Assembly: GCA_022835595.1 (NCBI GenBank)
Contig: BQUP01000002.1
Coordinates: 1,784,534-1,848,533 of the forward strand
Reading direction: 5' to 3'
DNA: 64,000 bases
Source of the DNA: Cystobasidium ongulense
Taxonomy: Eukaryota > Basidiomycota > Cystobasidiomycetes > Cystobasidiales > Cystobasidiaceae
The stretch's first letter is position 1. Each line of letters starts with the position of its first letter. A program made the position numbers and the translations under genes. Below the pieces are notes generated by a model, which saw only the letters and a program-made list of their open reading frames with translations, did not search any database and was not told the DNA's origin. Below, one piece after another: positions 1-57,946 of the stretch.

Positions 1-2173
1 GCATTCGACAGATACCTCCCCCAGACCACTCTGAATCCATCAGCAGAGACCTCTGGTAAACCATCACACAAGACGCCCCCATCCCAACCAGCCAAGCTAC
101 ACCCTGCGTCCTTCCTGCCGAATCAAGTGCTTGCGGATCTCCTCAAACGCGCGTATGCCGAGTACAGGGTAGGTGATTGCAGATTCTCCGAGCTGGCCTG
201 AGTATAGCTGAAGCAGCCTGTTGGTTCCTCTCTCCCCCGCCAATTCAGCTGTTCAACGGCACATTTGCCTATATGCTCGATAGCGGCGGACAGGAAAAGC
301 TACAGACCAAGATCACTGCTTTCTTCGATGCATGGCAGGATGATGCTAGGTTGATACCGCTGGGTAAGTGTTTACACATGCTTGTATTGAATAATGCCCT
401 CTATGCGTAATATTCCAGACTTACCTACGCCATCATCCAGGTATACCTCGTGCGCAACCCAGTTCGGCACATCAATTCCTCCAGCCTCCCTCGGGCTATA
501 CCATAGTCGCAGTTTCGCACTCTGGCATACTCGACACCTCGAGCAATGCTTCGACAAGTGAAGAAGTCAGCGATCATATTCTCACTCCATCGGATCATCT
601 AGCTTTATCGTGTCATTTAGCGAGTTTTCTCCCCAAAACGAAACCTCTGAACAGCAATAACTCGACAACAACAGCTTTGACAACATCGAATTCGTCTGTC
701 AAAGGGAAAGGGAAAAAAGTGAAGAAACAGCCTAGTTTGTCTTCATCTACTTGGAAGAGTCTACATCTATCTGGGATTACGAATTATCTCCCTTCGATGC
801 CTAGTATGCCCGGTACATCATCTTCATTATCAAATCCTCCTTCCATTAGTAACTTAGAAGGACAAGACAATGCAAAGAAGACAGGAATTGACATTTGTAG
901 CCCAAAGATAAGCTCAGCGTCAGTTCAGCTTGGTCAGGTAGCTCTTAAAGCGCAACATAACAAGCGCACACCTTCGGGGTCTGCTTGGATACCTACTTTC
1001 AGCCTGTTCGGTACATCTTCGTCCAGCTCGAAAGAGAAGGACACTGTTCCCAAACAGGAGATATTTGGCCAGGTCGATTCAACTCCCCCTGACACACTCC
1101 ATGACCAAGCTCAGACCATGCCTGAGAATTCTGCACCCGATACTGCCGGAGAACGGCCTGAATTGCCAACTGGCGATCCACCAAATAGCGCAGCTAGCGA
1201 AGCTAGCATGGAAGCTTTATCCGAAGCTATACTAGAGACGATATCTCCAGAAGCTGAGACTTCCGAAGCTCTAGCCACAGAAGATCGGCTTGCTCTAGAT
1301 ACTCCTCCTAACGAGCAGTCAGATACCAAAGTAGAAACAATGGGAGCGAAACCTGATCCTAGCGTACAGTCAAAGTTTCGAGCTACATGGCATGACGTTT
1401 GTACTGTATATATTGGTGATGAGTTTACCCCGGTTACCTCTTATCGTTTGAGTGTAAGTCCTTTCACTCAGCGCTACTTTCCAATGTGATCTCACTCAGA
1501 ACAACTTTTAATTGTTGCAGAGCGACGATATCGCAATGGCCTTGATATGTAGAAACGCTGAATCTTCCGAGTCTATGCATCCGGACGAGGGACTAAAACA
1601 AGACATTGAGCTAGATAAAGCAGTCATAAATCAGTATTTCACGCATCTAGCAACACTTCAAGCTTACCCTCCACCATCAGCAATGCCACAAAATCCAAGA
1701 TCTAGAATTTTCTTGTCGTTCGAAAATGCAGATGCTAGTAAAGTAATAGAGCAAAGCATAGATGATCGTGCGTCTGCTACAAATGCTAGCTTAGGTCAAC
1801 GATATAATCTAGCTATCAACGCCAAGACAGATACGGATAAGCTAATGAAACCGTAAGCTATCCATGTTGCGATGCGTATGGTAATTGACAAAAGGGAACG
1901 TGAGCTGAGCCGGTGAATTCTAATAGTGATACTCGAGAACTCTTCGTTCGTACACACTTCTCTCAATGGCTCGTCGCAGAACAAGAACCGAAATCCGATG
2001 ACATCGCAAAACTTACGATCCTACCGAAGAGTATTGGTAGAGAGGGCAGTTTACTCGATGCGGATGGTAAGTTACACCTTGGCATAACCAACATCCCACG
2101 GTGTGTATTCGTGACAGACAAGATTACTGACTCTTTCATCCGTTTTTCAGCTGAAATGCACCGGGGTCGCTGA
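1..2173 (+). CDS. CCZ1-like vacuolar fusion protein, 3' part (5' end outside window)
   Basis: The gene runs in from the left edge. A consistent model is exons 1-168, 249-363, 441-1453, 1521-1852, 1927-2066 and 2151-2173, with GT-AG introns at each junction and the frame kept throughout. The clearest segment lies across the first intron: a stretch ending KRAYAEYR joined to LFNGTFAYML and then FFDAWQDDARLIPLG. This resembles the end of the first longin domain of CCZ1/INTU/HPS4 proteins, where a hydrophobic (F/L)xxG strand is followed by a helix ending FWxxW. A long Ser/Pro/Glu-rich linker follows (about 681-1370), as in fungal Ccz1,, then a short conserved-looking block WHDVCTVYIGDE. In other fungi Ccz1 pairs with Mon1 as the exchange factor for Rab7/Ypt7 on late endosomes and vacuoles. 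The family call is tentative because the diagnostic N-terminus is missing. The gene itself is well supported by frame and splice sites. Confidence 0.45.
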
Positions 2174-2564
2174 ATAAGGCATATATGTGAAGCATTGTAG
2201 TTTCAGAAGCGATAAAGATGTTTCATATTACTTGTAGCTTATTTCTGGTTATTTACCAAGCGATGTATACACATGAAAGCTAAGCTATTGTGGCATGCAC
2301 GGTGCTCCCTCGCTCTATGGCTTTCTCTAGCTCAATGCAATCTTGCGCGCGGCGTTAAAGCAGCCTTGGGGCTCGGCGGGTCTTCCTTTGACCTATTATC
2401 AGCAATCGCTGACTTGCATGCGACAAGCCATTCTAGCTCGGACCGATTATTGTGCTTCATTGCAGTGTCTGCTACCAGTCCTGAATCCTTGCGAGTGGTA
2501 GCCGATCAACTTATATGCGGTCTCGCTTCGACGAGGAGGAGGAATCGAGACGATTCGGACGTCT
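2174..2564. other. intergenic, between convergent CCZ1-like gene and GLE1
   Basis: This stretch lies between the 3' ends of two convergent genes. It is rather GC-rich and contains open frames on both strands, including one of 118 codons on the plus strand that runs into the end of GLE1. None has a recognisable product, good splice context or conserved motif. I read it as overlapping 3' untranslated sequence. Confidence 0.4.
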
Positions 2565-4733
2565 TCAGGTCGGTATCCGGCCCTCTGCGCCTTGTATCTG
2601 ACCTTTCTCCATCCATTCTGAAATCATAAGTCTAATCTTGCTAAGGTCACCTTGCACACTATCGTTCCACTTGACTTTCCTCTGATCGATACCCTGTTCC
2701 GCAATAGCTTGCAGTAGCTTGATGTATTGTTTTCCAAATAGCACATGGAAACGCTCACTTGCCATTCGCAAGAAGGTATACAATAACAATGCAGTCACTT
2801 CGAGTAGAGGTAATGGAGGCCGGACTATTAACGCTAGCCAGCGCCAACCTCCTTCAGGTCGGAAATACGTAGGTATACTCGCTAATGATGGTGTTGGGGT
2901 GAGTTGCGGTACGGAACTTGGGGAAGTCTGAATTATAGCGGCGTAAAAGGAGATGATACCGCTCATTCGCTGCTTGTAACTTATGGGAGGCTCCCCTTCT
3001 TTACGCGCAAGAAGCTTGCTGTGCTCTTCCGGAGAGAGCTACTCAGAACATGCACACGTCAGTCAGCTTGCCGTTACCAACATCGCGAAGGCTTATTGTT
3101 GTGACGACTTACTGTTCCTTTAGAAGGGAAGAATGGAACTATATAAGGACATCTCTTGACAAGTCTCGCCATAAGAATCTCTCCAAAAGCTGCATGGTCT
3201 GCCAATAACAGCGAGACTACAATCTGAGCAAGAGCATAAGTAACAGGAGACAAATCAGGTTCCGAATTATTTCCAGCCATTTCCGTTATCTTTTTGCTTA
3301 ATAAATTCAAAGACCAAAGATATGCATTCTCATTGGCAGTTTTCGCGCCAATTAAAATTTCATGTATTGCTGATGCTGTGGCTTTGATATCCGATGCTGA
3401 TGCAGATACATTCGATATCCTGGTTGAAATTGAACGTTTTACTTTCCAGCATGCATTCTTGAGATCTTTATTATTTGATACAGCTGGTAAGACTGTTTCT
3501 TTGAGCTCTTTGATCTTTGCATGCCATCTTTCGAACTCGCGCTTCGACTCCAGAAGGCTCGATCCTGCGCTTGATGGTTTCGGTATTGCGGGTGCACCGC
3601 CTGCTGGAACGCCGACAGCTGTTTTTCCAGCTTCTTCCTTTTCTTTCCTAGCTCGTTCATTAGCAGCTTGTTCTACTTTTGCCCTTTGCTCTTGGGCAGC
3701 TCTTTCTTTTAATTGCTGCTCCTCTAGTTTCTTTCTTTGCTCTTCCTTCTCCGTTTCAATCTTCTTTAGTTCAGCCAATCTCATCTCCTTAGCTTTCGCT
3801 TCAGCTTCTTCTTGTTTCTTCTTTGCAATTGTAATAGCTTCATTTTCAGCCTTTTCCAATTCTGAAATAGCACGATTGATTTCATTCCATCTAGCTTTAT
3901 TTCTATTTTGAAATTCAATGTCAATTTCTTCTTCTTCTTTTTGTCGTTTCATATTCATACTTGCTAATAACATTGTTGTCATTTCTAATTCTTCTGCTTG
4001 TAATCGTTTACTTTGCTCGGAGGCTTGCGCAAAGGCGTTGAGCCGTATACTCCGTAAAGCTGCCAAGTCACGGTTGTGACTTGCTTGTGCTGATTGCTGT
4101 ATAAAGGCGGTCATATCTGAGTGAGCGATGTGTCATTTGGAGCTATTTTCTTTCAACAACGCACCCATGCTTTCTTCTGCTGCTTGGCAAGGTAGCTTTC
4201 CAGAGGGTCGGATTGAGCGGGATACTGGCTCAGACGTCTGTAAGATAAACACAGAAGCTAAGCAGGCGTATAGTGCTCGCTGATTCCCGAATTAAGGATG
4301 CATACCTTCTGTTGGCCAAGTCTGCACTCGTCGGATTGACGGGGAACTCGTCCTCTTCGCTATCACTGCCCGAGAACGATACTCCGCTCTCGTCGCTGTC
4401 CGACTCGTCGTCCTCGTCTGAATCGCTGTCGATGTCATCCGACAAGGAAGAGTCAGACGAAGTGGATGCTCTGAGCCTGCTTCTATCCTCTGTGTTGCGC
4501 GTGCTTCTTGTAGCTGGAGCTGGAGGGACGCTGGATGATCGGATGTGGGCGTGTATCAGTACTCATACACCCAGCAAAGCCTGTAAATGCACAGCGAACC
4601 TGATGCGAACACTGCGAGACCGTTTGGGGCTGTCATTCTTTGCCCTCCCCTTGCCTTTGACGTCTTGAGGCATACCACCACTACCATTGTCGCTTTCCTC
4701 GGTCTCGGTCGACGACTCGTAGGAGAAGCGCAT
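2565..4733 (-). CDS. GLE1: GLE1, nuclear pore mRNA export factor
   Basis: GLE1 sits on the cytoplasmic face of the nuclear pore and, with inositol hexakisphosphate, activates the DEAD-box ATPase Dbp5 to release exported mRNA. The model, in transcription order, is 4733-4600, 4530-4306, 4237-4165, 4096-3113 and 3038-2565. The N-terminus MRFSYESSTETEESDN resembles the yeast start (MRF plus an acidic/Ser stretch). It is followed by an acidic Ser region, a highly charged coiled coil rich in Glu, Lys and Gln (roughly 3650-4000), and then the HEAT-like C-terminal domain. Diagnostic C-terminal pieces are AYLWSLNLLSKKI, LMARLVKRCPYIVPF and SYKQRMSGIISFYAAIIQT, the last matching the yeast block SYDERMGGILSLFAIITRL. 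The protein ends within a few residues of the yeast one. The second ATG at 4114 is not the start, since the acceptor at 4097 joins the acidic N-terminus in frame. Confidence 0.9.
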
Positions 4734-45606: not shown

Positions 45607-45933
45607 GCTTGTGGGTGGTGTACAGGTGGAATGAGAGCGAGGGCATGGATGGGCGAAATTGCAAGTGTAGAGCAGTCCGATCACGTAGAAGTGCCGGCGA
45701 GTGCAAGTGGAAGAGCACGACAGCAGGGAGGGAATGAGAAAGAGTAGAGAGTATCTACACCTCTCTATTACACTACGACGCCCCTCCAGCTCGAACGAAG
45801 CTGGTCCGCCTACCGAAGAGCACGCCGCCACCCGCTCGCCGCTTACCGAGAGAAGCTGCTTCTATGCAGGATAGACGCATCTCATCTTGTTGCTTGCATG
45901 ACATACTCGCTCGCTGGCAGCACACACTACACC
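45607..45933. promoter_or_regulatory. divergent promoter, COX11 / OTU protease
   Basis: About 330 nt separate two divergent start codons. It is GC-rich with no clear TATA box. Another ATG at 45898 is in frame with the OTU gene but has a poorer context than the CACCATGG at 45934. Confidence 0.35.
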
Positions 45934-47677
45934 ATGGACACCATCAAGGCAGAGCACGACATCAACGAGCTCAAGCTGCAGTCCCTCCAGCGCGAGGTCG
46001 ACAACGTGCAGCCAGCAGGCAGTCCACCGGCAGCAGCAGGGCTTGCAGGCGGGAGCAGCAGCAACACTCCGACACACGCATCGACACTCTCTCCGCCTCC
46101 GAACACCATCAATGGCTCAGGTGGTGGCTCAGTGAAGCCCTCGCGCTCTCCAGTCGACATTGCAAGCCAGCTCTTCTCCCGCAACAAGTCAAAGTCAAGC
46201 GGCAGCAAGAACAAGAAGAAGTCATCTCCGAGGGGAAGGGCTACTCCTCCTGCAAACACCACTGCCAATGGACAACAAGCAGCCTCAAATATAGACCAGC
46301 TAAGGCAAGAAATCCAAAATACTCAGTCAAACGAAATGAAACTCGTCTCTTCGGCAATTGGGATCAACCCCGATGGAAATGCATTAACAGAAGAAGGGCA
46401 TGATGAGGTTCTAGATTTAGCTGATCAGCTGCTTGCTCAGTTGGATGCAAAGGAGGATATGATTCCTAATCAGCCTGTCTCGTCATCCTCTAACACTGGC
46501 ATAGCAAGCGGACCTACCACTTCTAACACGTCAAATGTTCCACTAGCAGCACCACAACCTATTAACATTGCTGATGCAAATATGAATGCACAAAATGGTG
46601 GTGTCATGGCCAACATGCAAGGTTATTCAAGCCTACAGCCTGCTTCTTCGAGACAATCTGCCACCTCGTCGACTTCTGCAATGAGTTCCGCCTCTACGAC
46701 GATCCCTGTGACGATTCCCGCAAATGCATCTTCCTCACGCTCAAGGCATTCTTCCTCTTCAAGCGCTCCCAAACCTACTGGATTTGGAGCAAAGCTGAAA
46801 CAGGCATTATCGCCCCATCGAGATGATTCCCCTATATCGCCATCACCAAATGGAGGTGAAGCTTCTTCCTCCGAAGCAGCAAGTAACGCAGGAACTACTT
46901 CAACATCTCCATTTTCAGCACAAACATTCAAAAATCGACATGCATTGCGTAAAGAAAAGAAGAAACAAAAAGAAGATGCAATGAGAGCTGAAGCTCAAGC
47001 TGAAGTAGACGCAGAAAGAGCTAATGGAGGAATAAATAACAAATATGACGCTGCAGATATGGAAAGGATTAATATAGATAACATTTGTCGTTCTTGGAAT
47101 TTAGAATTAATAGAAATGGAACCTGATGGTCACTGTATGTATTCTGCTATTGCAGATCAATTAATTTCAAAGAAAATCACACTAGGAGATAAAAAGGAAA
47201 AGAAGAAGGAAAAGGAGAAATGGGATTATAATGCTGTTAGGAGAATAGCTGCTGAGTATATGAGGAATCATATGGATGATTTCTTACCTTATATACCTGC
47301 TGAAGATATTGAAGGTCAAGGTGAAGGTCTGCTCAGTCCGGAAGGATACAAGAAGCATTGTGACAATGTCGAAAACACGTCCGAATGGGGCAGTCAGACG
47401 GAGGTGCGTATTCACGTCATCTAGTTCGTTATCTACGCCTTACTGACCAAGTACGGTGTCCTGTAAACAGCTCCTCGCCCTTTCCAAAGCACTCCAATTA
47501 CCCATTTGGGTCATCCAAGCCCATTCTCCAACCGTTAAAATAGGAACGGAAGAAGCCTACGCGAAGAAGAAGTCACCTCTTATTGTGACTTATCATAGAG
47601 TGCAGTATGGATTAGGGGAGCATTACAATTCGGCTAGAACAATGCCGAGGGAGAGCGGTATGGTTTATTTAGGATGA
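45934..47677 (+). CDS. OTU-domain deubiquitinase (OTUD6/Otu2-like)
   Basis: This is a cysteine protease of the OTU family that cleaves ubiquitin chains. Exons 45934-47403 and 47471-47677 give 558 residues. An N-terminal helix ([20 protein letters not shown]) is followed by about 300 residues of Ser/Asn/Gln-rich sequence. A Lys/Glu-rich coiled coil ([20 protein letters not shown]) comes next, then the OTU domain: [18 protein letters not shown] with the catalytic Asp and Cys near residue 400, [31 protein letters not shown], and the catalytic His in [11 protein letters not shown] near 540. The coiled coil plus C-terminal OTU matches OTUD6B/yeast Otu2, which act on ribosomes and translation factors. 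The stop codon falls in the first unit of a 30-nt tandem repeat. Confidence 0.92.
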
Positions 47678-47732
47678 GCAATTGATCACTAGGAGTGACT
47701 ATGATGAGCAATTGATCACTAGGAGTGACTAT
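47673..47732. repeat. two-unit 30-nt direct tandem repeat at the OTU stop codon
   Basis: The 30-nt unit beginning GATGAGCAATTGATCACTAG occurs twice in a row without a mismatch (47673-47702 and 47703-47732). The TGA stop of the OTU gene lies in the first unit. A recent duplication is likely. Confidence 0.9.
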
Positions 47733-48220: not shown

Positions 48221-51200
48221 ATGTCGAAAGCGCAGGTGTCAAAGAGCGCACAAGAGGAGCTCCCCAAGGCCCTCGAGCTCACCTTTGACGCACTCACCAA
48301 CGAGATCAACCTCACCCTCTTCGAGCATGTCGACGAGCGAGCCGTCCCGCTAGAGTTCAAATTCACCTATTCGCCAGAGACGCCATTCTGCCCTATTGCA
48401 AAGCAGGACGCTTCAAGCGAGAACAGAGCTTGCAAAGATGCTTACTGGAAGCTCTGGGAGCTCGATACTGCTCCTGATGGAAGCAAAGACGCGACCATCG
48501 ACGAATTAAGCTTGGACGATGTCTTCCAGGGCGAAGAAGTCGAGATCAAGCAGGATGAAGTCTCGAGATTCTGCAACGTCGTAGGCAACAGCCAGGAAGC
48601 TTATAAAGGCGCCGGTCAGGTCCCTATGGACTTCTCAATCAAGCTTGCTTGGAGAGTGAGCTGTCTCTGTCTTTGTCTACTCGCCGTTCATCTCGCTAAC
48701 CTGTAGTATTCCCCAGTCCATCATGCGGTCCATCTTCCCAAATGCCATCGACGGCAACCTGCTCAAGCTCGTCCATCTATCCAACGGCTTCACCCAGCTC
48801 AAGAACTGCAGAGCTCTCCGCATCGGAGACCGCGTCACTTCAACTTCCCGCATCGTCTCAGTGTCCAACTCGGACTCGGGCAAGACCGTCTCCGTCAAGG
48901 GTACCGTATTCCTCATAAACGAAGATGGCACACAAACTCCTGCAATTCAAGCAGAGTCAAGCTTCCTCTACAGAGGCAGCTTTACTGATTTCCACAACAC
49001 ATTCGAAAAGAGAACGGAAACTACATACTCACTCACCGTTCCTACACCTCAAGCTGTTGCCGTCCTCCAATCCAAAGAATGGTTCGACTGGTTGGACGAG
49101 TCCAAGCCTCTCACTCCTGGTACCACCCTCATCTTCAACACCGACAGCGAGATCAGGTATAAATCAAAGACCACCTATTCCAGTGTCAGCGTTGTTGGTA
49201 CTGCTTCGCTTGCTTCCACCATTGGACCACTCAAGGGTGTACAAGATGTAGCCGAGATCAACTACTCTTCCACTGGTACTACAGTCGGTAATCCAGTCCT
49301 CGAGTACCTCAAGCGACATGGTACACCGCTAGATCAGCCGGTCATGCTCGCTTCCCCTTACACCATCACATCCGCCGAGCGACCTTCCCTCATCTATACA
49401 CCCGCTTCGAATTGGAACTACTCTGCGGTCTCAGGAGATGTTAATCCAATCCACGTCAATCCTTACTTTTCAGACTTGGCAAATCTACCAGGTACCATTA
49501 CTCATGGCATGTGGACTTCTGCAGCAACTAGAAAATACGTAGAACAGGTCGCAGCTGATAACAAGCCTGAAAGAGTCGTTTCTTACAATGTCTCATTCAC
49601 CGCCATGGTTCTACCCAACTCTGAACTCCAAGTCGTCCTAAAGCACATTGGTCAGAAAGATGGTAACAAATTAATCGAAGTCTCTACTTTCGATACCGCT
49701 ACCGGCAACAAGGTAGTTTCAGGACAAGCTGAGGTTTCTCAGGCTCCTACTGCTTATGTCTTTACCGGACAAGGATCCCAAGAACCAGGAATGGGAATGG
49801 AATTATACGCTTCATCTGAAGTCGCTCGAAAAGTATGGGACAGAGCAGATGAACATTTAGGTGATGTTTATGGTTTCTCAATTATTGAAATTGTTAAACA
49901 TAACCCTCAAGAAATTACCGTTCATTTCGGTGGTCTCAAAGGACAGCGTATTAGACAGAGATATATGGATATGACTTATCATACTGCTGATAAAGAAGGA
50001 AATGTTAAAATGTTACCTCTTTTCCCTGATATTGACTTGAGAACTTCTAGATATACCTTTTCTTCTCCTACTGGTCTATTATTCGCTACTCAATTCGCGC
50101 AAATAGCTTTAGTAGTTACTGAAAAAGCTGCATTCGAAGATATGCGAGCTAAGGGTCTAGTTCAGGAAGGTGCACCTTTCGCTGGTCACTCTCTAGGTGA
50201 ATATTCTGCTTTAGCTTCCATTGCAGAAGTTTTACCTATTTCGGCTTTGGTGGATGTCGTATTCTATAGAGGTATCACTATGCAGAGAGCAGTTGAACGT
50301 GATAGTCAAAGTAGATCCAAGTACGCTATGGTAGCTATCAACCCTAGCAGAATTGGAAAGACTTTCACGGACGCTGCTTTGAGAGAGGTAGTCGATACAG
50401 TTTCCACACGAACGGATACTCTCCTCCAGATTGTCAATTACAACGTCGATGGTCAGCAATACGTCGCTGCTGGTGAACTCGTAGCATTACAAGCTCTATC
50501 GAACGTCTTGAACTTCCTCAAGATCCAAAAGATTGATCTAAAGAAATTGACCGAAACAATGTCAGTCGAAGATGTTCGTGAACAATTGGGAGAAATCGTA
50601 GATGAATGCTTTGCAAAAGCTAAAGATCTTGAGGTCAAATCTGATGGACATATTAAGCTTGAGAGAGGTTTCGCTACTATCCCTCTCCCCGGTATCGATG
50701 TACCTTTCCATTCGAGATATCTATGGGCCGGAGTTATGCCTTTCAGAACATACCTATCAAAGAAAATCAACCCTGCCGATCTCAATCCTGATCTGTTGGT
50801 TGGTAAATACATTCCAAATCTTACTGCAGAACCATTTGAAATCTCAAAGAGATACTGTGAATTGGTTCATGGACAAACTTCTTCTCCTCGACTGGAGAAA
50901 GTTCTCAAGAAATGGGAAGAAGATCACTGGGAGTCGGATGAGAACAGATCTAAACTTGGTTATATTATTCTTGTTGAACTTTTGGCCTATCAGTTCGCTT
51001 CACCTGTAAGATGGATCGAAACTCAAGACAAACTCTTCACCGATTTCAAGTTTGAAAGACTTATTGAGTTGGGTCCTGGACCTACTCTTACTGGAATGGC
51101 TACCAGAACCCTCAAAGCTAAATATCAGACAAGCGATGATTCCACTACCGTCAAGAGGGAGATCTACTGTATCGCAAAAAATCAAGCGGATATTTACTAT

Positions 51201-54200
51201 ATTCGCGAAGACGAAGTCGCAGAGGAAGCTGCTCCTGTTGAAGCTGCTGCTTCAGCTCCAGCTCCAGCTCCAGCTGCTGCTTCCGCCCCCGCTCCAGTTG
51301 CTGCTGCTGCACCAGCACCCGCTGCTGCTGCGGGACCAGCTGCCTCAGTGCCAGATGAGCCACTCAAGGCCGTCGATACTCTCCGAGTCATTATTGCTCA
51401 AAAACTCAAGAAACAAATCGGCGATATCTCTCTCCAGAAGAATATCAAAGATATGGTCGGAGGTAAATCCACACTTCAGAATGAAATCTTAGGTGATCTG
51501 CAAGCGGAATTCAGTTCTGCGCCCGAAAAGGGTGAAGAACTGCCTTTGGAAGAACTTGGTGCTGCTTTGAACATTGGTTACGCCGGTACACTTGGAAAAC
51601 ATACCGGTGGGCTCGTCTCAAGAATGGTAGGAAGCAAACTTCCAGGTGGATTCGGTATTTCTGCTGTGAAAGCATACCTAGGCAAACAATGGGGTTTGGG
51701 ACCTGGAAGAACAGACGGTGCTTTGCTCGTTGGTCTCACAATGGAACCAGCTAAACGTCTAGGCTCAGAAGCGGAAGCTAAAGCATTCCTTGACTCTGTC
51801 GCTCAATCTTATGCTAAATCAGCTGGAATTAGCTTGTCCAGTGGAGCAGCTGCAGGTGGAGGTGGTGCCGCTTCAGGTGGCGCTGCCGTCGATTCTGAAG
51901 CTCTCAACAAGCTCCAATCACAGCAAGACGAGTTCGTCAGCCAACAGGTTGATGTCCTCCTCCGATACCTCAAGCGAGATGGAAGAGAAGGTTACAGACT
52001 TGCCGATGCTACTAAGCTTGACGCTGAAGCTCTACAGGCTCAGCTCGATGCTATCAATAGAGAGCATGGCGAAGCTTACATCAACGGAATCCAACCTAGC
52101 TTTGAACCTCTCAAGGCTCGTCATTTCAATTCTGCCTTCAATTGGGTCCGTCAGGATGCATTGTGCATGTTTTTCGATATCATGTGGGTTTATTTGGCGT
52201 TGTACTGAGAGCATCTCCATACTGATCAGACTGCTTGCTATTCATTGCAGCTTCGGCCGTCTCACTGCTGTAGACAGAGATGTTACTCATCGCTGCTTGA
52301 TCATCATGAACAGAGCTGATCCTACATTGGTCAGTACCCTCCACCACTCTCACATTGCGAGCGTTCACTAAATCTGCTGCTTTCACAGATCGACTACATG
52401 ACTTACGTCTTGGGTAAGGTCGATCCCACACGAGGGCCAAATTACAAGCTCGCAAAGGAATTCGGTTTCCAGCTCTTGGAGAACTGCAAAGAAGTAGTCG
52501 GTACTGCGCCTCTGTACAAGGATGTTACATTCCCTACTGCACCCAAGACCACTATCACCGCGAAGGGAGACATCATCTACGAAGAGACAAACCGAAAGGG
52601 AGTCTCTCGCCTCGAGAAGTATGTCGCGGAGATGGCTGCTGGTAGCACCGCCCAGCCAAACGTCAACCTCGATAAGGTCCACGAGTCTATTTCAAACTTG
52701 TACAAACTGGTAAAGTCCCAGCCGCAAGTTAATAAGCAGCACATGGCCGCCATCAAGTCCTTGTATGGTGAAGTTGTCAAAAACATGGGCAAGAAGACCA
52801 AGATGCCACCCAGCACTGGACCAACTGGAGCTCAAGGAAGATCACCCGCACGCGCTCGTCGACCTTCCAATCAATTCTTGCGACCTGTCAATGTTTCTGA
52901 GCCTACTCCGGTGCCCGAAGATGCTACGCCTTTACTCCACCTCAAGCGCAAGGTTGGCAACGACTGGCAATACTCCAGCAAGCTTACTTCGCTGTACTTG
53001 GATATTTTGAAGGAGATCGCTACCTCTGGTACTACTTTCGAGCACAAGAACGCCCTTCTCACAGGTGTAGGCAAGGCTTCCATTGGTGTTGAAATCGTCA
53101 AAGGTCTTCTCAGTGGTGGTGCTAAGGTTGTCATCACCACCTCTCGCTACTCTCGAGAGACTGTCGAATACTATCAGTCAATCTACCAGGAGTGCGGTTC
53201 TCGAGGATCTAGCTTAACTGTCGTTCCCTTCAACGGTGGTTCCAAGCAGGATATCGATGCTCTTGTCGAATACATCTACTCCACCGATCCCAATAATGGT
53301 CTTGACATGGATCTCGACTTCGTTCTACCCTTCGCCGCTATTCCTGAAAATGGCAGAGAAATTGATGGTCTCGACGACAAGTCAGAATTGGCGCACAGAG
53401 TCATGCTTACTAATTTGCTTCGATTACTCGGTGCTATCAAGACGAAGAAGGCTAGCAGACGATTTATTACTCGTCCTACACAGGTCATTCTCCCTCTTTC
53501 ACCCAATCACGGTCTCTTCGGAAACGATGGTCTCTATAGTGAATCCAAGATCTCGCTCGAGACCTTGTTCAACAGATGGAACTCCGAATCCTGGGGACAG
53601 TATCTCTGCATTGCAGGTGCCGTTATTGGATGGACGTAAGTATCTCTACAATGCTGCTGGAAGTTGTTTCGCTTTTGCTAACGATCTATGTATTTCAGCC
53701 GCGGAACTGGTCTCATGTCGGCTACAAATGTTGTTGCCGCCGGTGTCGAGGAACTCGGATGCCGAACCTTCAGTGCGAAGGAGATGGCTTTCAATATCTT
53801 GGGTCTTATGCATCCTCTCATGTTCGATGTCTCGCAGACCGAGCCTGTTTGGGCAGACGTATGTCCTCTCTTTTTCAACGGTTTTCACCCTCGCTAATAC
53901 ACTTTCTCCTGTTCAGTTCAACGGTGGTATGAGCGCAATTGCCGATCTACACATTCTCAATGCCAAGATCAGAGACGATATCAACAAGACCGCCTCCACT
54001 CGCAAAGCTATCGCTATGGATAACTCTGCCGATTTCAAGACCAGCAACGGTAGCGAGGGCGAAAGCGTGCAGCAGAAGGTCCATATCGCTCCTCGCGCCA
54101 ACTTCACCTTGCCATTCCCCAAGCTGCCCGAAAGCTACGATGAACGACCGGACCTCAACCAGCTTCAAGGCCTGGTTGACTTGGAACAGGTCATTGTCGT

Positions 54201-56876
54201 CACCGGTTATGCTGAGGTCGGACCATTCGGTTCAGCTAGAACAAGATGGCAGATGGAAGCTAAGGGAGACTTCACTATTGAAGGTCTTCTCGAGTTAGCT
54301 TTCACTCTTGGTCTCACTCGTCACTTCAATGGTCGACTAAAGAACGGCCAGACCTACGTCGGATGGGTTGACGCGAAGACTGAGGAGCCTGTCGATGATA
54401 AGGATGTCCGCGGTCGATACGAGAAGCACATTCTTGAGCACACTGGTGTCCGTCTCATCGAGCCTGAGCTCTTCCGAGGCTATGACCCCAAGCGCAAGGG
54501 CTTCACACAGGAGATTGAGATTCAACACGATCTCGAACCTATTGAGACCAATCCTGCTGATGCCGAGCGATTCAAGCTCGAGCACGGCAACAAGGTCGAT
54601 GTATGGGTTGATGGCGACCGATGCTTCATCAAGTTCAAGAAGGGCGCGAAGCTGCTTGTACCCAAGGCGGTTCGCTTCGACAGACTTGTCGCAGGACAAA
54701 TTCCTACTGGATGGGATGCACGTGTCTTCGGTATCCCCGACGATATCGTCAGTCAGACCGACAGAACTGCTCTCTGGGCATTGGTCTGCGTTGCTGAAGC
54801 TCTCATGGCTTCTGGTATCACCGATCCCTATGAGCTTTACAAGTACGTCCATCCTTCCCAGGTTGGTACTTCTATCGGTTCCGGTATGGGTGGTATGGAA
54901 TCTCTCTCCAAGATGTTCAGGGATAGAAGAGAAGAGAAGGATATTCAGAACGACATTCTCCAGGAGACTTTCATCAACACAGTCGCTGTAAGTATCTGCT
55001 CATGCTGAACACTTGTTTTATCCATACTAACGTCTTTGCTACTTACAGGGATGGGTCAACTTGCTATTGGTATCCTCCAACGGTCCCATCAAGATTCCTG
55101 TTGGTGCTTGCGCTACCGCTTTGCAGTCTCTTGAAATCGCTTGCGATACCATCCGATCTGGCAAGGCCAAGGTCATGTTTGCCGGTGGTTTCGATGACTT
55201 TTCCGAGGAGGGTTCATACGAATTCGCCAACATGAAGGCTACAAGCAACACTGTCACCGAGTTCGCTAGTGGACGTGAACCAAATGAGATGTCCAGACCT
55301 ACTACCAGCACCCGTGCTGGATTCATGGAGTCCCAGGGATGTGGTGTCCAGGTTCTCATGTCTGCCAAGACCGCTGTCGAAATGGGTGCAACTATCTGTA
55401 AGTGAAATCAGACCAGCTATCGAACCGTCAAGTATAATGCTTATACCCCCTTCTCTCCCAGACGGTATTGTCGGATACACAAGCACTGCTTCAGACAAGG
55501 CTGGCCGAAGTATCCCTGCTCCTGGACGCGGTATTCTCAGCACTGCTCGACAGCTCACAAGCAAGTACCCTGCCCGCAGCCTCGAAATCAGCTACCGAAA
55601 GAGACAGCTTGAATTCCGCCGAAAGCAGATCTCTGACTGGCTTGATAACGAGGTCGCACTGCTCAAGGAAGAGACAGACCAAGATACCGGATACTACGCT
55701 GACCGCCTCTCCACCATTGAGAAAGAGGCTAGACGACAAGAGTCCGAGGCTATGTCTACCTTTGGTATGCTCGCTGGTGAAGGTACCGATCCCAACGTCG
55801 CTCCTCTCCGACGTGCTTTGGCTGTTTGGGGTCTTACAATCGATGATATCGGTGTTGCATCATTCCACGGCACTTCCACCAAGGCCAACGACAAGAACGA
55901 GAGTAATGCATTCAATACCCAGTTCATGCATCTTGGACGTACAAAGGGTAATGCATGCCCTGTCGTCGCTCAGAAATGGCTCACCGGTCACCCCAAGGGT
56001 GGTGCCGCTGCTTGGATGACGAACGGAATGATTCAGACGATCCAAGATGCTCTTATCCCTGGTAACAGAAACGCCGACAACATCTCTCCCGAAATGCAAG
56101 CCTTCGAATACCTCGTCTATCCTTCGAGATCCATTCAGACCGATGGTATCAAGGCTGGTCTACTCAAGTCTTTCGGTTTCGGACAAGTTGGTGGAGAGTG
56201 CTTGGTCATTCACCCCGAGTACTTGCTTGCTGCTCTCGACCCTTCGAAGTACAAGCAATACAAGGCCAAAAACGCAGACCGATTCGATGCTGCATACAGG
56301 AAGTTCAACGATATGTTTGTTCACAGGAACTTGGTCATCCTCAAGGAAGCTCCTCCTTATACTCCAGAGCTTGAGCAGGATGTTCTTCTCAACCCTCTCG
56401 CACGAGCATCGAAGGACGCCAAGGGATCATACTCTTTCAGCAAGGATATGCCCACTTCAGAGATTTCCGCTCAGGCACTTGCAGCTGCTGAAATGACCGC
56501 CAGCTCTGCTGGTGTGTACGGCGTTGGTACCGATGTAGAGCTCATCTCCGCCATCCCTATCGACAACGAGACCTTCTTGGAGCGCAATTTCACTGTTGGC
56601 GAATTGGCTTACTGCAAGAAGGCTTCCGACATGCAAGCTTCTCTCGCTGGTCGATGGGCCGCCAAAGAGGCCGTCTTCAAGTCACTCAAGACCACTAGCA
56701 AGGGCGGCGGTGCTTCCATGAAGGACATTGAGATCGTCTCTTCCGACAAGGGACCTACCGTCCAGCTTTCTGGCGATGCTAAGCGTGTCGCTGATGAAGC
56801 CGGTATCAAGTCCTTTGAAGTCTCTTTGTCGCACGCCGAGGGAGTCGCTCTCGCCGTAGCAGTAGCCAAGAATTAG
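48221..56876 (+). CDS. fatty acid synthase large subunit, domains DH-MPT-ACP-KR-KS-PPT
   Basis: Eight exons (48221-48655, 48717-52183, 52251-52329, 52389-53635, 53699-53858, 53917-54987, 55049-55397, 55462-56876) give 2740 residues. Domains in order are as follows. The double-hotdog dehydratase has [13 protein letters not shown] near 386. Malonyl/palmitoyl transferase has [12 protein letters not shown] near 635. An Ala/Pro linker precedes one acyl carrier domain with the phosphopantetheine serine in [10 protein letters not shown] near 1061. Ketoreductase has [20 protein letters not shown] and YSESK. Ketosynthase has Cys in [11 protein letters not shown] near 2175 and His in [11 protein letters not shown] and [10 protein letters not shown]. 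Phosphopantetheinyl transferase has GTDVELI and [11 protein letters not shown]. In yeast, DH and most of MPT belong to the beta subunit and the rest to alpha. Here they are fused, so a separate AT-ER subunit must exist outside this window. No catalytic residue appears lost. Confidence 0.97.
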
Positions 56877-57110: not shown

Positions 57111-57946
57111 ATGACGCAGCGTGAGGAGATTGTGGTCCATCAGATCTCATTTGCCGATGTCCGTCAGTTCGCATCTGTTACGAACAGCGTCTTTGCTCGG
57201 GATCCGGGAACAGCGTTGAGTAAGTAGTGCTTGCGAGAGTGCCACGTTGAAAGGTTGCACGAAGCTTACCAATCTACACAGTGTTCGCATATCCATGTCG
57301 TAAATCAGAACCTGAGGCCTACAAACGTGCTGTCCAAAAAACAGACCCGCTGCGACAGGCTTCCATGCTACGTCGGTATTGCGAACCGACAAGTTACATG
57401 GTATGCGCGAAAGTCGACAACGAAGTAGCTGGCGTTGCGATATGGACTCCTCCGAAAAAGAAATTGCGATATGTTCCACTCCACCTGAGGTTCCTTCGAC
57501 TCGTACTATCAGTGTACGACACGATTACCGCCTTCATATACCCTGATTGGCTGCGGAAAATGATCAATCCGACAAAGCACGAAGAGCTCGCAGGCAGGAG
57601 CGAACGTCGTTCGAAGATCATGGACTTGGACAACGAGATTCGCAAAAATTGCGTCCCTTCAGAGATGAAGGAGGGCACTTACTGGACTTTATCAGTTCTA
57701 GGTGTGTCCGAAGAATACGGCAGACGAGGGATTGGAACAAAACTTCTGCAATGGGGCTTTGATAGAGCCGACGCCGACGATAGACACATATTCGTTTCTG
57801 CAAGCCAAGAAGGAGCTGCTTTATACAAGAAATCTGGATTCCAAGTTATCCATTACGCGCCGCAGATTCTGTACGATCCCATCCGTGGCTGGATGGACCA
57901 AACCTACCTCGTAAGGTGGAACAGGAGCAGACGTGAGGGATTCTGA
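57111..57946 (+). CDS. GNAT-family N-acetyltransferase
   Basis: Two exons, 57111-57219 and 57282-57946, give 257 residues. The acetyl-CoA binding motif A is clear: LSVLGVSEEYGRRGIGTKLL near residue 170-190, with the RxxGxG/T core, followed by the beta-bulge strand IFVSASQEGAALYKKSGFQ. Upstream is a block typical of fungal GNATs of the toxin/small-molecule type (VCAKVDNEVAGVAIWTPPKK). The substrate is unknown. The ATG at 57111 is the first in the frame; the frame opens a little upstream at a non-ATG codon. It lies 230 nt downstream of the fatty acid synthase on the same strand, with no evident functional link. Confidence 0.9.

What the first reader, a model, noticed from the sequence alone, without database searches (positions are those of the whole stretch)
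48221..56876. Fatty acid synthase with dehydratase and malonyl/palmitoyl transferase moved onto the alpha-type subunit
Seen: one continuous spliced frame carries DH, MPT, ACP, KR, KS and PPT with all catalytic motifs. Known: in yeast-type FAS, DH and most of MPT belong to the beta subunit, and MPT is completed by the alpha N-terminus. I recall a similar split with tandem ACP domains reported for Rhodosporidium toruloides. Here I count only one ACP. Inference: the partner subunit should be a short AT-ER protein, and the break point is at the ER/DH border. A single-ACP version would be an informative intermediate for how the megacomplex was re-divided.
Basis: partly seen in the sequence, partly recalled or inferred. 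Interest (0 to 1): 0.75.

Follow-up and report, generated by a model that had tools for sequence, protein, structure and literature searches.

The report
Split fungal fatty acid synthase, large subunit
This is the large half of an ordinary fungal fatty-acid-making machine, cut in two at the place known from red yeasts and also seen in rust fungi; it has one carrier domain where some red yeasts have two, which is the usual state in that group and not a new kind of machine.

Summary
Window 48221-56876 (+) holds one gene of 8 exons and 7 GT..AG introns, encoding 2740 aa: half-meander sheet, DH, MPT (with the piece that yeast keeps at the alpha N-terminus), one ACP, KR, KS, PPT, with all catalytic motifs. 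The predicted partner exists: one AT-ER gene (1291 aa) on another contig, with the other half of the meander domain. Genome searches found no second ER, type I ACP or starter-AT, so no full-length beta subunit. This is the published Rhodosporidium-type split. Of 51 FAS1-like database proteins examined, 40 end at the same point (+0 to 14 residues); those with names are, by recall, all Pucciniomycotina: one ancestral fission, not domains 'moved' here. The single ACP is no special intermediate. Of 19 split-type FAS2 relatives in the main listing, 12 have one ACP and 7 have two; two of the 12 (Rhodotorula) are probably faulty records, the others include rusts, Mixia, Microbotryum and Atractiella. 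The FAS2 tree puts the window with Mixia, outside the tandem-ACP yeasts. So fission probably came first and ACP doubling later; the date of the doubling within Microbotryomycetes is open. A new member of a known kind; interest low.

The parts
48221..56876 (+). FAS2 (alpha-type) gene, 8 exons: 48221-48655, 48717-52183, 52251-52329, 52389-53635, 53699-53858, 53917-54987, 55049-55397, 55462-56876; 2740 aa
   Evidence: spliced frame without stops; 64-71% identity to FAS2 proteins P0001-P0019 in their best local alignment
48242..48457 (+). C-terminal half of FAS_meander sheet (profile 72-143 of 146); the subunit break point
   Evidence: the N-terminal half (profile 4-74) is on contig C8
48524..49703 (+). 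Dehydratase (DH) region, aa 102-474, with GDVNPIH and GTITHGM motifs; crossed by intron 1 (48656-48716)
49755..50849 (+). Malonyl/palmitoyl transferase (MPT), aa 492-856, GHSLGE serine 637
50946..51236 (+). Part of MPT that sits at the alpha N-terminus in ascomycete FAS ([16 protein letters not shown]), here fused in line
   Evidence: aa 889 onward aligns from residue 6 of 4v58_A and 2uv8_A; the end of this part (aa 985) is judged by eye
51351..51836 (+). Single ACP domain, aa 1024-1185, GGKS serine 1063
51918..52646 (+). FAS_I_H helical domain, aa 1213-1413, crossed by introns 2 and 3
53046..53588 (+). Ketoreductase (KR), aa 1547-1727, GLYSESK
   Evidence: below curated cut-off; alignment to 4v58_A
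54688..56075 (+). Ketoacyl synthase (KS), aa 2054-2474, GACATA / SFHGTST / GHPKGG; crossed by introns 6 and 7
56520..56807 (+). Phosphopantetheinyl transferase (PPT), aa 2623-2718

Best explanation
The locus is FAS2 of a two-gene, Rhodosporidium-type (Pucciniomycotina-type) fungal type I fatty acid synthase. Shown from sequence: FAS2 carries DH-MPT-ACP-KR-KS-PPT; FAS1, on another contig, carries AT-ER; the meander beta sheet is cut cleanly in two, with profile positions 4-74 in FAS1 and 69-143 in FAS2; the cut is at the same place in the related genes. Inferred: as in R. toruloides, the two chains rejoin through the shared sheet and build an ordinary alpha6-beta6 barrel, with FAS1 trimers as caps over a FAS2 core. 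Here MPT is formed by one chain and not by two. One ACP per FAS2, charged by its own PPT, shuttles the acyl chain. The single ACP is most likely the unduplicated ancestral state; the tandem ACP of red yeasts came after the fission.
For: Gene model and domains. Partner gene L010 2261-6578, 1291 aa, SAT/AT + ER + half-meander. The genome search gives one FAS_meander in two halves (C8:966853-967071, profile 4-74; C2:1832769-1832990, profile 69-143), one Fas1-AflB locus, one SAT, one type I ACP. Against a single-chain FAS (P0020, Wallemia) FAS1 maps up to residue 1212 and FAS2 from its residue 16 to 1221-3922, a gap of 8 residues. Same break in 8 of 8 aligned FAS1/FAS2 pairs and in 40 of 51 FAS1-like proteins; the first aligned residue of FAS2 lies at window 9-15 in 18 of 19 relatives. 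One ACP in 12 of 19 relatives. FAS2 tree: window with Mixia, SH-aLRT 100, outside the clade that holds the tandem-ACP yeasts. ACP tree of 27 chosen rows: window, P0248 and Mixia together (97/91), outside the clade of tandem copies (90/87). Published topology and yeast reconstruction: PMC6972935 section 6.
Against: No transcript, protein or structural data for this organism; assembly of the complex is not shown. The FAS2 tree is a quick one and Mixia has a long branch. The first ACP tree, with 46 rows, did not put the window with Mixia: it fell with P0248 and the long-branch Atractiella (94/56), and no well-supported set held it; the window-Mixia group appears in the tree of 27 rows chosen from these 46. 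The branch that separates the window's ACP from the tandem copies has middling support (90/87). A single clade of all tandem copies is not rejected but is not the best tree (p-AU 0.284), so the date of the duplication relative to Microbotryum and JL201 is open. One paper passage names R. toruloides FAS as a single polypeptide (PMC8683515), against PMC6972935 and PMC10293357. FAS2 residues 60-72, next to the break, have lost a segment kept in the 21 relatives aligned, which this explanation does not account for.
Confidence: 0.95

Rival explanations
1. The single ACP is a secondary loss: the lineage had tandem ACPs, like R. toruloides, and lost one.
For: Tandem ACPs also occur in Phenoliferia (P0266, partial) and in distant fungi (P0246, P0259, P0292, and weakly P0295), so the copy number can change. 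Fewest changes with all 27 rows of the FAS2 tree is 3. The single ACPs of JL201 and Microbotryum fall nearest the first copies (99/95, 91/94), which would mean an early duplication with losses.
Against: The window's ACP falls outside both tandem-copy groups in both ACP trees. Rusts, Mixia, Atractiella and the five single-chain proteins printed have one ACP. Without the two doubtful Rhodotorula records one gain explains the rows of the FAS2 tree.
Confidence: 0.08
2. The single ACP is an assembly collapse or a missed exon, and the real gene has two.
For: Such an error seems to exist in R. graminis WP1 (P0009, one ACP): a metagenome protein with the same post-ACP linker (P0265) has two, and the one ACP of P0009 groups with its second copy (98/94).
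Against: The ACP lies inside one uninterrupted 1155-codon exon. A relative from another source (P0248, partial, 81% identical over 60% of the query) also has one ACP between linkers of the same type. The tandem copies of nine relatives are 75-83% identical in protein, which makes collapse unlikely.
Confidence: 0.02
3. The locus makes two proteins, one DH-MPT and one ACP-KR-KS-PPT, by separate transcripts or cleavage at the Ala/Pro linker, restoring an ascomycete-like subunit.
For: The Ala/Pro-rich linker is a typical flexible tether; nothing here measured RNA or protein.
Against: No stop, intron or gap at the linker. The ascomycete alpha N-terminal piece lies upstream of the linker, fused to MPT, and the relatives hold the same domains on one chain. 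R. toruloides FAS2 is described with DH and MPT on the chain that holds ACP, KR, KS and PPT (PMC10293357 passages).
Confidence: 0.02

Closest known systems
Rhodosporidium-type FAS (Rhodotorula toruloides FAS1/FAS2)
   Same: Same subunit make-up (AT-ER and DH-MPT-ACP-KR-KS-PPT), same break in the meander/SBS sheet
   Different: One ACP and not two tandem ones; FAS1 and FAS2 on different contigs; divergent segment at FAS2 aa 60-72
Mixia osmundae FAS2 (P0011) and FAS1 (P0137)
   Same: Same split, one ACP; sister row of the window in the FAS2 tree and grouped with it in the 27-row ACP tree
   Different: 2782 aa; 66% identical in FAS2; both subunit records show a longest contig of equal size (1386256), so probably linked
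FAS2 of rust fungi (Puccinia striiformis P0017, Phakopsora P0015, Cronartium P0018)
   Same: Same split, one ACP
   Different: 65% identity; rust FAS1 records examined carry 4-14 extra C-terminal residues
Single-chain basidiomycete FAS (Wallemia P0020, Coprinopsis P0079)
   Same: Homologous along the whole length; the two window proteins tile it, with an 8-residue gap for P0020
   Different: One gene and not two
Ascomycota-type FAS (S. cerevisiae 2uv8, Thermomyces 4v58)
   Same: Homologous along both chains
   Different: Cut inside MPT and not inside the meander sheet
Tremellomycetes-type FAS (Cryptococcus, P0274)
   Same: Two-gene basidiomycete FAS
   Different: Cut in the 4-helix bundle between KR and KS (PMC6972935)

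Membership tests
Fungal type I FAS, alpha/beta family | Homologous set of AT, ER, DH, MPT, ACP, KR, KS, PPT in one genome | tested here: met
Rhodosporidium-type FAS (topology as defined in PMC6972935) | FAS1 carries only AT and ER | tested here: met
Rhodosporidium-type FAS (topology as defined in PMC6972935) | FAS2 starts before DH and carries DH through PPT | tested here: met
Rhodosporidium-type FAS (topology as defined in PMC6972935) | Break inside the shared beta sheet (SBS/meander) | tested here: met
   that Pfam FAS_meander is the SBS of the paper is my reading
Rhodosporidium-type FAS (topology as defined in PMC6972935) | Assembles to the alpha6-beta6 barrel | not testable with these tools
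   no structure or biochemistry of this organism
R. toruloides FAS proper | Two tandem ACP domains | tested here: not met
   one ACP; so it has the split but not the tandem ACP
Ascomycota-type FAS | DH and most of MPT on the beta chain | tested here: not met
Tremellomycetes-type FAS | Break between KR and KS | tested here: not met
   KR and KS are on one chain

The most novel reading that the evidence does not exclude
The split was followed by lineage-specific remodelling of the subunit interface. FAS2 residues 60-72, just after the half-sheet strands at the break, replace a segment (usually HEV/HEI...RN.RIK) kept in some form in the 21 other FAS2 proteins aligned and in the four basidiomycete and one ascomycete reference FAS aligned. 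If real, this fungus may join its AT-ER caps to the core in a changed way, while keeping the unduplicated ACP.
Probability: 0.1. Interest if true: 0.35.

Novelty: new member of a known kind. Interest (0 to 1): 0.18.

Why it matters
It documents, in a lineage near Mixia, that the Pucciniomycotina FAS fission predates the ACP duplication known from oleaginous red yeasts. That makes the single-ACP enzymes the natural baseline for asking what a second ACP adds. The topology itself is already published, and single-ACP examples already lie in public databases.

Tried and rejected
Considered and rejected: (a) a Tremellomycete source with a convergent split. I first guessed Kwoniella; the relatives and the tree put it in Pucciniomycotina. 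(b) A full-length beta subunit elsewhere: PF08354 and PF16073 each gave one gene, and PF17951 gave only the two halves of this pair; the one other PF00698 hit (C1:823796) has no such match on its contig and may be a mitochondrial malonyltransferase (not followed). (c) Same topology outside Pucciniomycotina: the listing holds other proteins with a FAS2-like make-up and no Fas1-AflB domain (for example P0243 Somion, P0260 and P0261 Coemansia, P0270 Nowakowskiella, P0272 Batrachochytrium, P0298 Coelomomyces), several marked partial. Three were mapped: P0272, P0270 and P0261 first match at window residues 29, 68 and 44, at their own residues 75, 5 and 179, so they do not begin at this break; P0243, P0260 and P0298 were not mapped. 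(d) R. graminis WP1 and Rhodotorula JG-1b as true single-ACP reversions: doubtful. (e) Dating the ACP duplication before or after Microbotryum: not resolved (p-AU 0.284).

Led nowhere: the R. toruloides FAS structure paper (PMC4456111), the multi-omic map (PMC3493640) and the paper on origins of fungal FAS (10.1016/j.str.2014.09.016) are not held. Passages of PMC7788717, PMC7260205, PMC10786820, PMC7300031 and PMC11330776 added little. Structure prediction was not used; sequence homology to solved structures was enough.
Full report
What is there. Splicing seven short canonical introns (58-67 bp) out of window 48221-56876 gives one frame of 2740 aa. Pfam assigns, in order, the second half of FAS_meander (aa 8-79), the dehydratase regions (102-474), Acyl_transf_1 = MPT (492-856), one Fas_alpha_ACP (1024-1185), FAS_I_H (1213-1413), KR (1547-1727, below its cut-off), KS (2054-2474) and PPT (2623-2718). 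Residues 889 to the end align with nearly the whole alpha chain of Thermomyces FAS, 4v58_A residues 6-1877, and residues 147-880 with the end of its beta chain, 4v58_G 1339-2058. The piece that completes MPT from the alpha N-terminus in yeast ([16 protein letters not shown], aa 900) is here in line behind MPT. The motifs searched for are present: DH GDVNPIH and [48 protein letters not shown] and GHPKGG, PPT GVGTD and RWAAKEA. The assignment of catalytic roles to these motifs is recalled knowledge.

The partner. The own-genome search finds one Fas1-AflB-like locus, on contig C8. Its model (L010 2261-6578, five canonical introns) is 1291 aa, with SAT/AT, Fas1-AflB and the first half of FAS_meander and the AT and ER motifs searched for. 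Four in-frame models remained, differing only at the last intron; I took the one with the best splice signals. It matches solved beta chains up to residue 1192 of 4v58_G, that is AT and ER only. In the genome FAS_meander occurs as two halves, profile 4-74 on C8 and 69-143 in the window; SAT and type I ACP each give one hit. These searches run exon by exon and score only the best candidates.

The break. Against single-chain FAS of Wallemia the two proteins tile it at residues 66-1212 and, from FAS2 residue 16, 1221-3922. In 8 of 8 aligned FAS1/FAS2 pairs (window, R. toruloides, JL201, Microbotryum, Mixia, R. graminis, P. striiformis, Phakopsora) FAS1 stops at, or up to 14 residues after, the same point. 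One search listed 120 of 246 matches; I mapped the best 51 (P0121-P0171). Of these, 40 end at the break (0 to 14 residues beyond), 10 run on (223 to 936 residues beyond) and one (P0159) has a divergent end. Six of the 40 have no source name; the named ones are, by my recall of their genera, all Pucciniomycotina. One search listed 120 of 1576 matches, 19 of them split-type FAS2 proteins (P0001-P0019, 2716-2934 aa, no Fas1-AflB domain); the first aligned residue lies at window 9-15 and at their residue 2-9 in 18 of the 19, the exception being P0010, whose model starts later. One fission in the ancestor of Pucciniomycotina explains this best. Published work calls this the Rhodosporidium-type split, inside a shared beta sheet whose termini do not intertwine. 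It showed that yeast FAS rebuilt with this split works, and fails when the N-terminal sheet of the alpha side is removed (PMC6972935; section 6 read in full; other passages). R. toruloides FAS1 and FAS2 domains with two ACPs are stated in PMC10293357 (passages). A passage of PMC8683515 instead names R. toruloides as having all centres on one polypeptide; the proteins seen here (P0003, P0124) do not bear that out.

The ACP. Among P0001-P0019, 12 have one ACP and 7 have two; in Atractiella (P0019) the one match lacks the GGKS/GGRS motif. A further rust protein, P0244, has one. Of 339 proteins searched (337 held plus the window pair), 202 matched the ACP query: 189 once, 13 twice. The two-ACP set among relatives is Sporobolomyces, Rhodosporidiobolus and Rhodotorula, with partial Phenoliferia P0266 and partial metagenome P0265. 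R. graminis (P0009) and JG-1b (P0010) show one ACP but sit among two-ACP relatives; their one ACP falls with the second copies, and P0265, with the same post-ACP linker as P0009, has two. I regard these two as probable gene-model or assembly omissions. On the FAS2 tree with ACPs removed (27 rows: window, the 19 relatives and 7 chosen single-chain proteins) the window pairs with Mixia (SH-aLRT 100; quick tree, Mixia long), away from rusts and from Microbotryomycetes. Fewest changes of ACP number: 3 with all rows, 1 without the two doubtful rows.

ACP trees. With 46 ACP rows the window fell with P0248 and the long-branch Atractiella (94/56) and not with Mixia. I then dropped 19 rows (the distant tandem copies, Atractiella, Tremellomycetes, several rusts, the two doubtful Rhodotorula, a mostly empty row and one single-chain row); with the 27 left, window, P0248 and Mixia group (97/91), and the tandem copies with JL201 and Microbotryum form another group (90/87). 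Against a simple story: the single ACPs of JL201 and Microbotryum fall nearest the first copies (99/95, 91/94), which would put the duplication earlier, with later losses; a clade of tandem copies alone is not rejected (p-AU 0.284). In neither tree does the window fall inside a group of tandem copies.

Mechanism. Inferred from R. toruloides and the yeast reconstructions: FAS1 (AT-ER) trimers cap a FAS2 core, the two chains complete one beta sheet, MPT is made by one chain, and one ACP per FAS2, activated by the fused PPT, serves the chamber. None of this was measured here.

Novelty. The topology is known. Paper searches (judged from titles, starts of abstracts and the passages read) showed none on single-ACP members of this split, but the library lacks the three most relevant papers, so I make no claim that it is unpublished. 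The proteins themselves are in public databases. I rate it a new member of a known kind.

Left over. Window FAS2 residues 60-72 ([13 protein letters not shown]) depart from the HEV/HEI-type segment present in some form in the 21 relatives aligned; a general form of this motif was found in 238 of the 337 proteins held, many of which are partial.

Noticed in passing
window 48398-48436 (FAS2 aa 60-72): A segment kept in some form in the 21 other FAS2 proteins aligned (HEV/HEI...RN.RIK type) is replaced by [13 protein letters not shown], one residue longer, close to the subunit break.
   Followed up: partly
P0009 (Rhodotorula graminis WP1) and P0010 (Rhodotorula sp. JG-1b): Database FAS2 models with one ACP that probably omit the first of two: their ACP falls with the second copies, and P0265 with the same post-ACP linker as P0009 has both.
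   Followed up: partly
G000 C2 and C8; relatives: FAS1 and FAS2 lie on different contigs here. In Microbotryum the gene tags are consecutive (BQ5605_C028g10556 and 10557); Mixia, JL201, R. graminis and R. toruloides records show longest contigs of equal size for both genes, which suggests linkage kept from the fission and lost later.
   Followed up: no
In the ACP tree the two copies fall together in P0259 and P0292, suggesting separate duplications.
   Followed up: no
PMC4393869 (passages): Xanthophyllomyces dendrorhous FAS2 (XDEN_04041) is reported with KS, AT and ACP domains, although elsewhere in that paper no ACP was found; this does not fit the Tremellomycetes-type cut as described and may be worth a check.
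   Followed up: no
G000 C1:1944026-1944274 and C2:2874067-2874240: Two further ACPS (phosphopantetheinyl transferase) family matches in the genome besides the PPT domain of FAS2.
   Followed up: no
window 45748-47424 (+): Neighbouring open frame with an OTU-like cysteine protease domain; by eye it may go on through an intron to about 47680.
   Followed up: partly
window 57251-57946 (+): Downstream open frame with a GNAT acetyltransferase domain.
   Followed up: partly
window 47673-47732: A 30-bp unit (gatgagcaattgatcactaggagtgactat) occurs twice in tandem between the OTU frame and FAS2 (read by eye).
   Followed up: no
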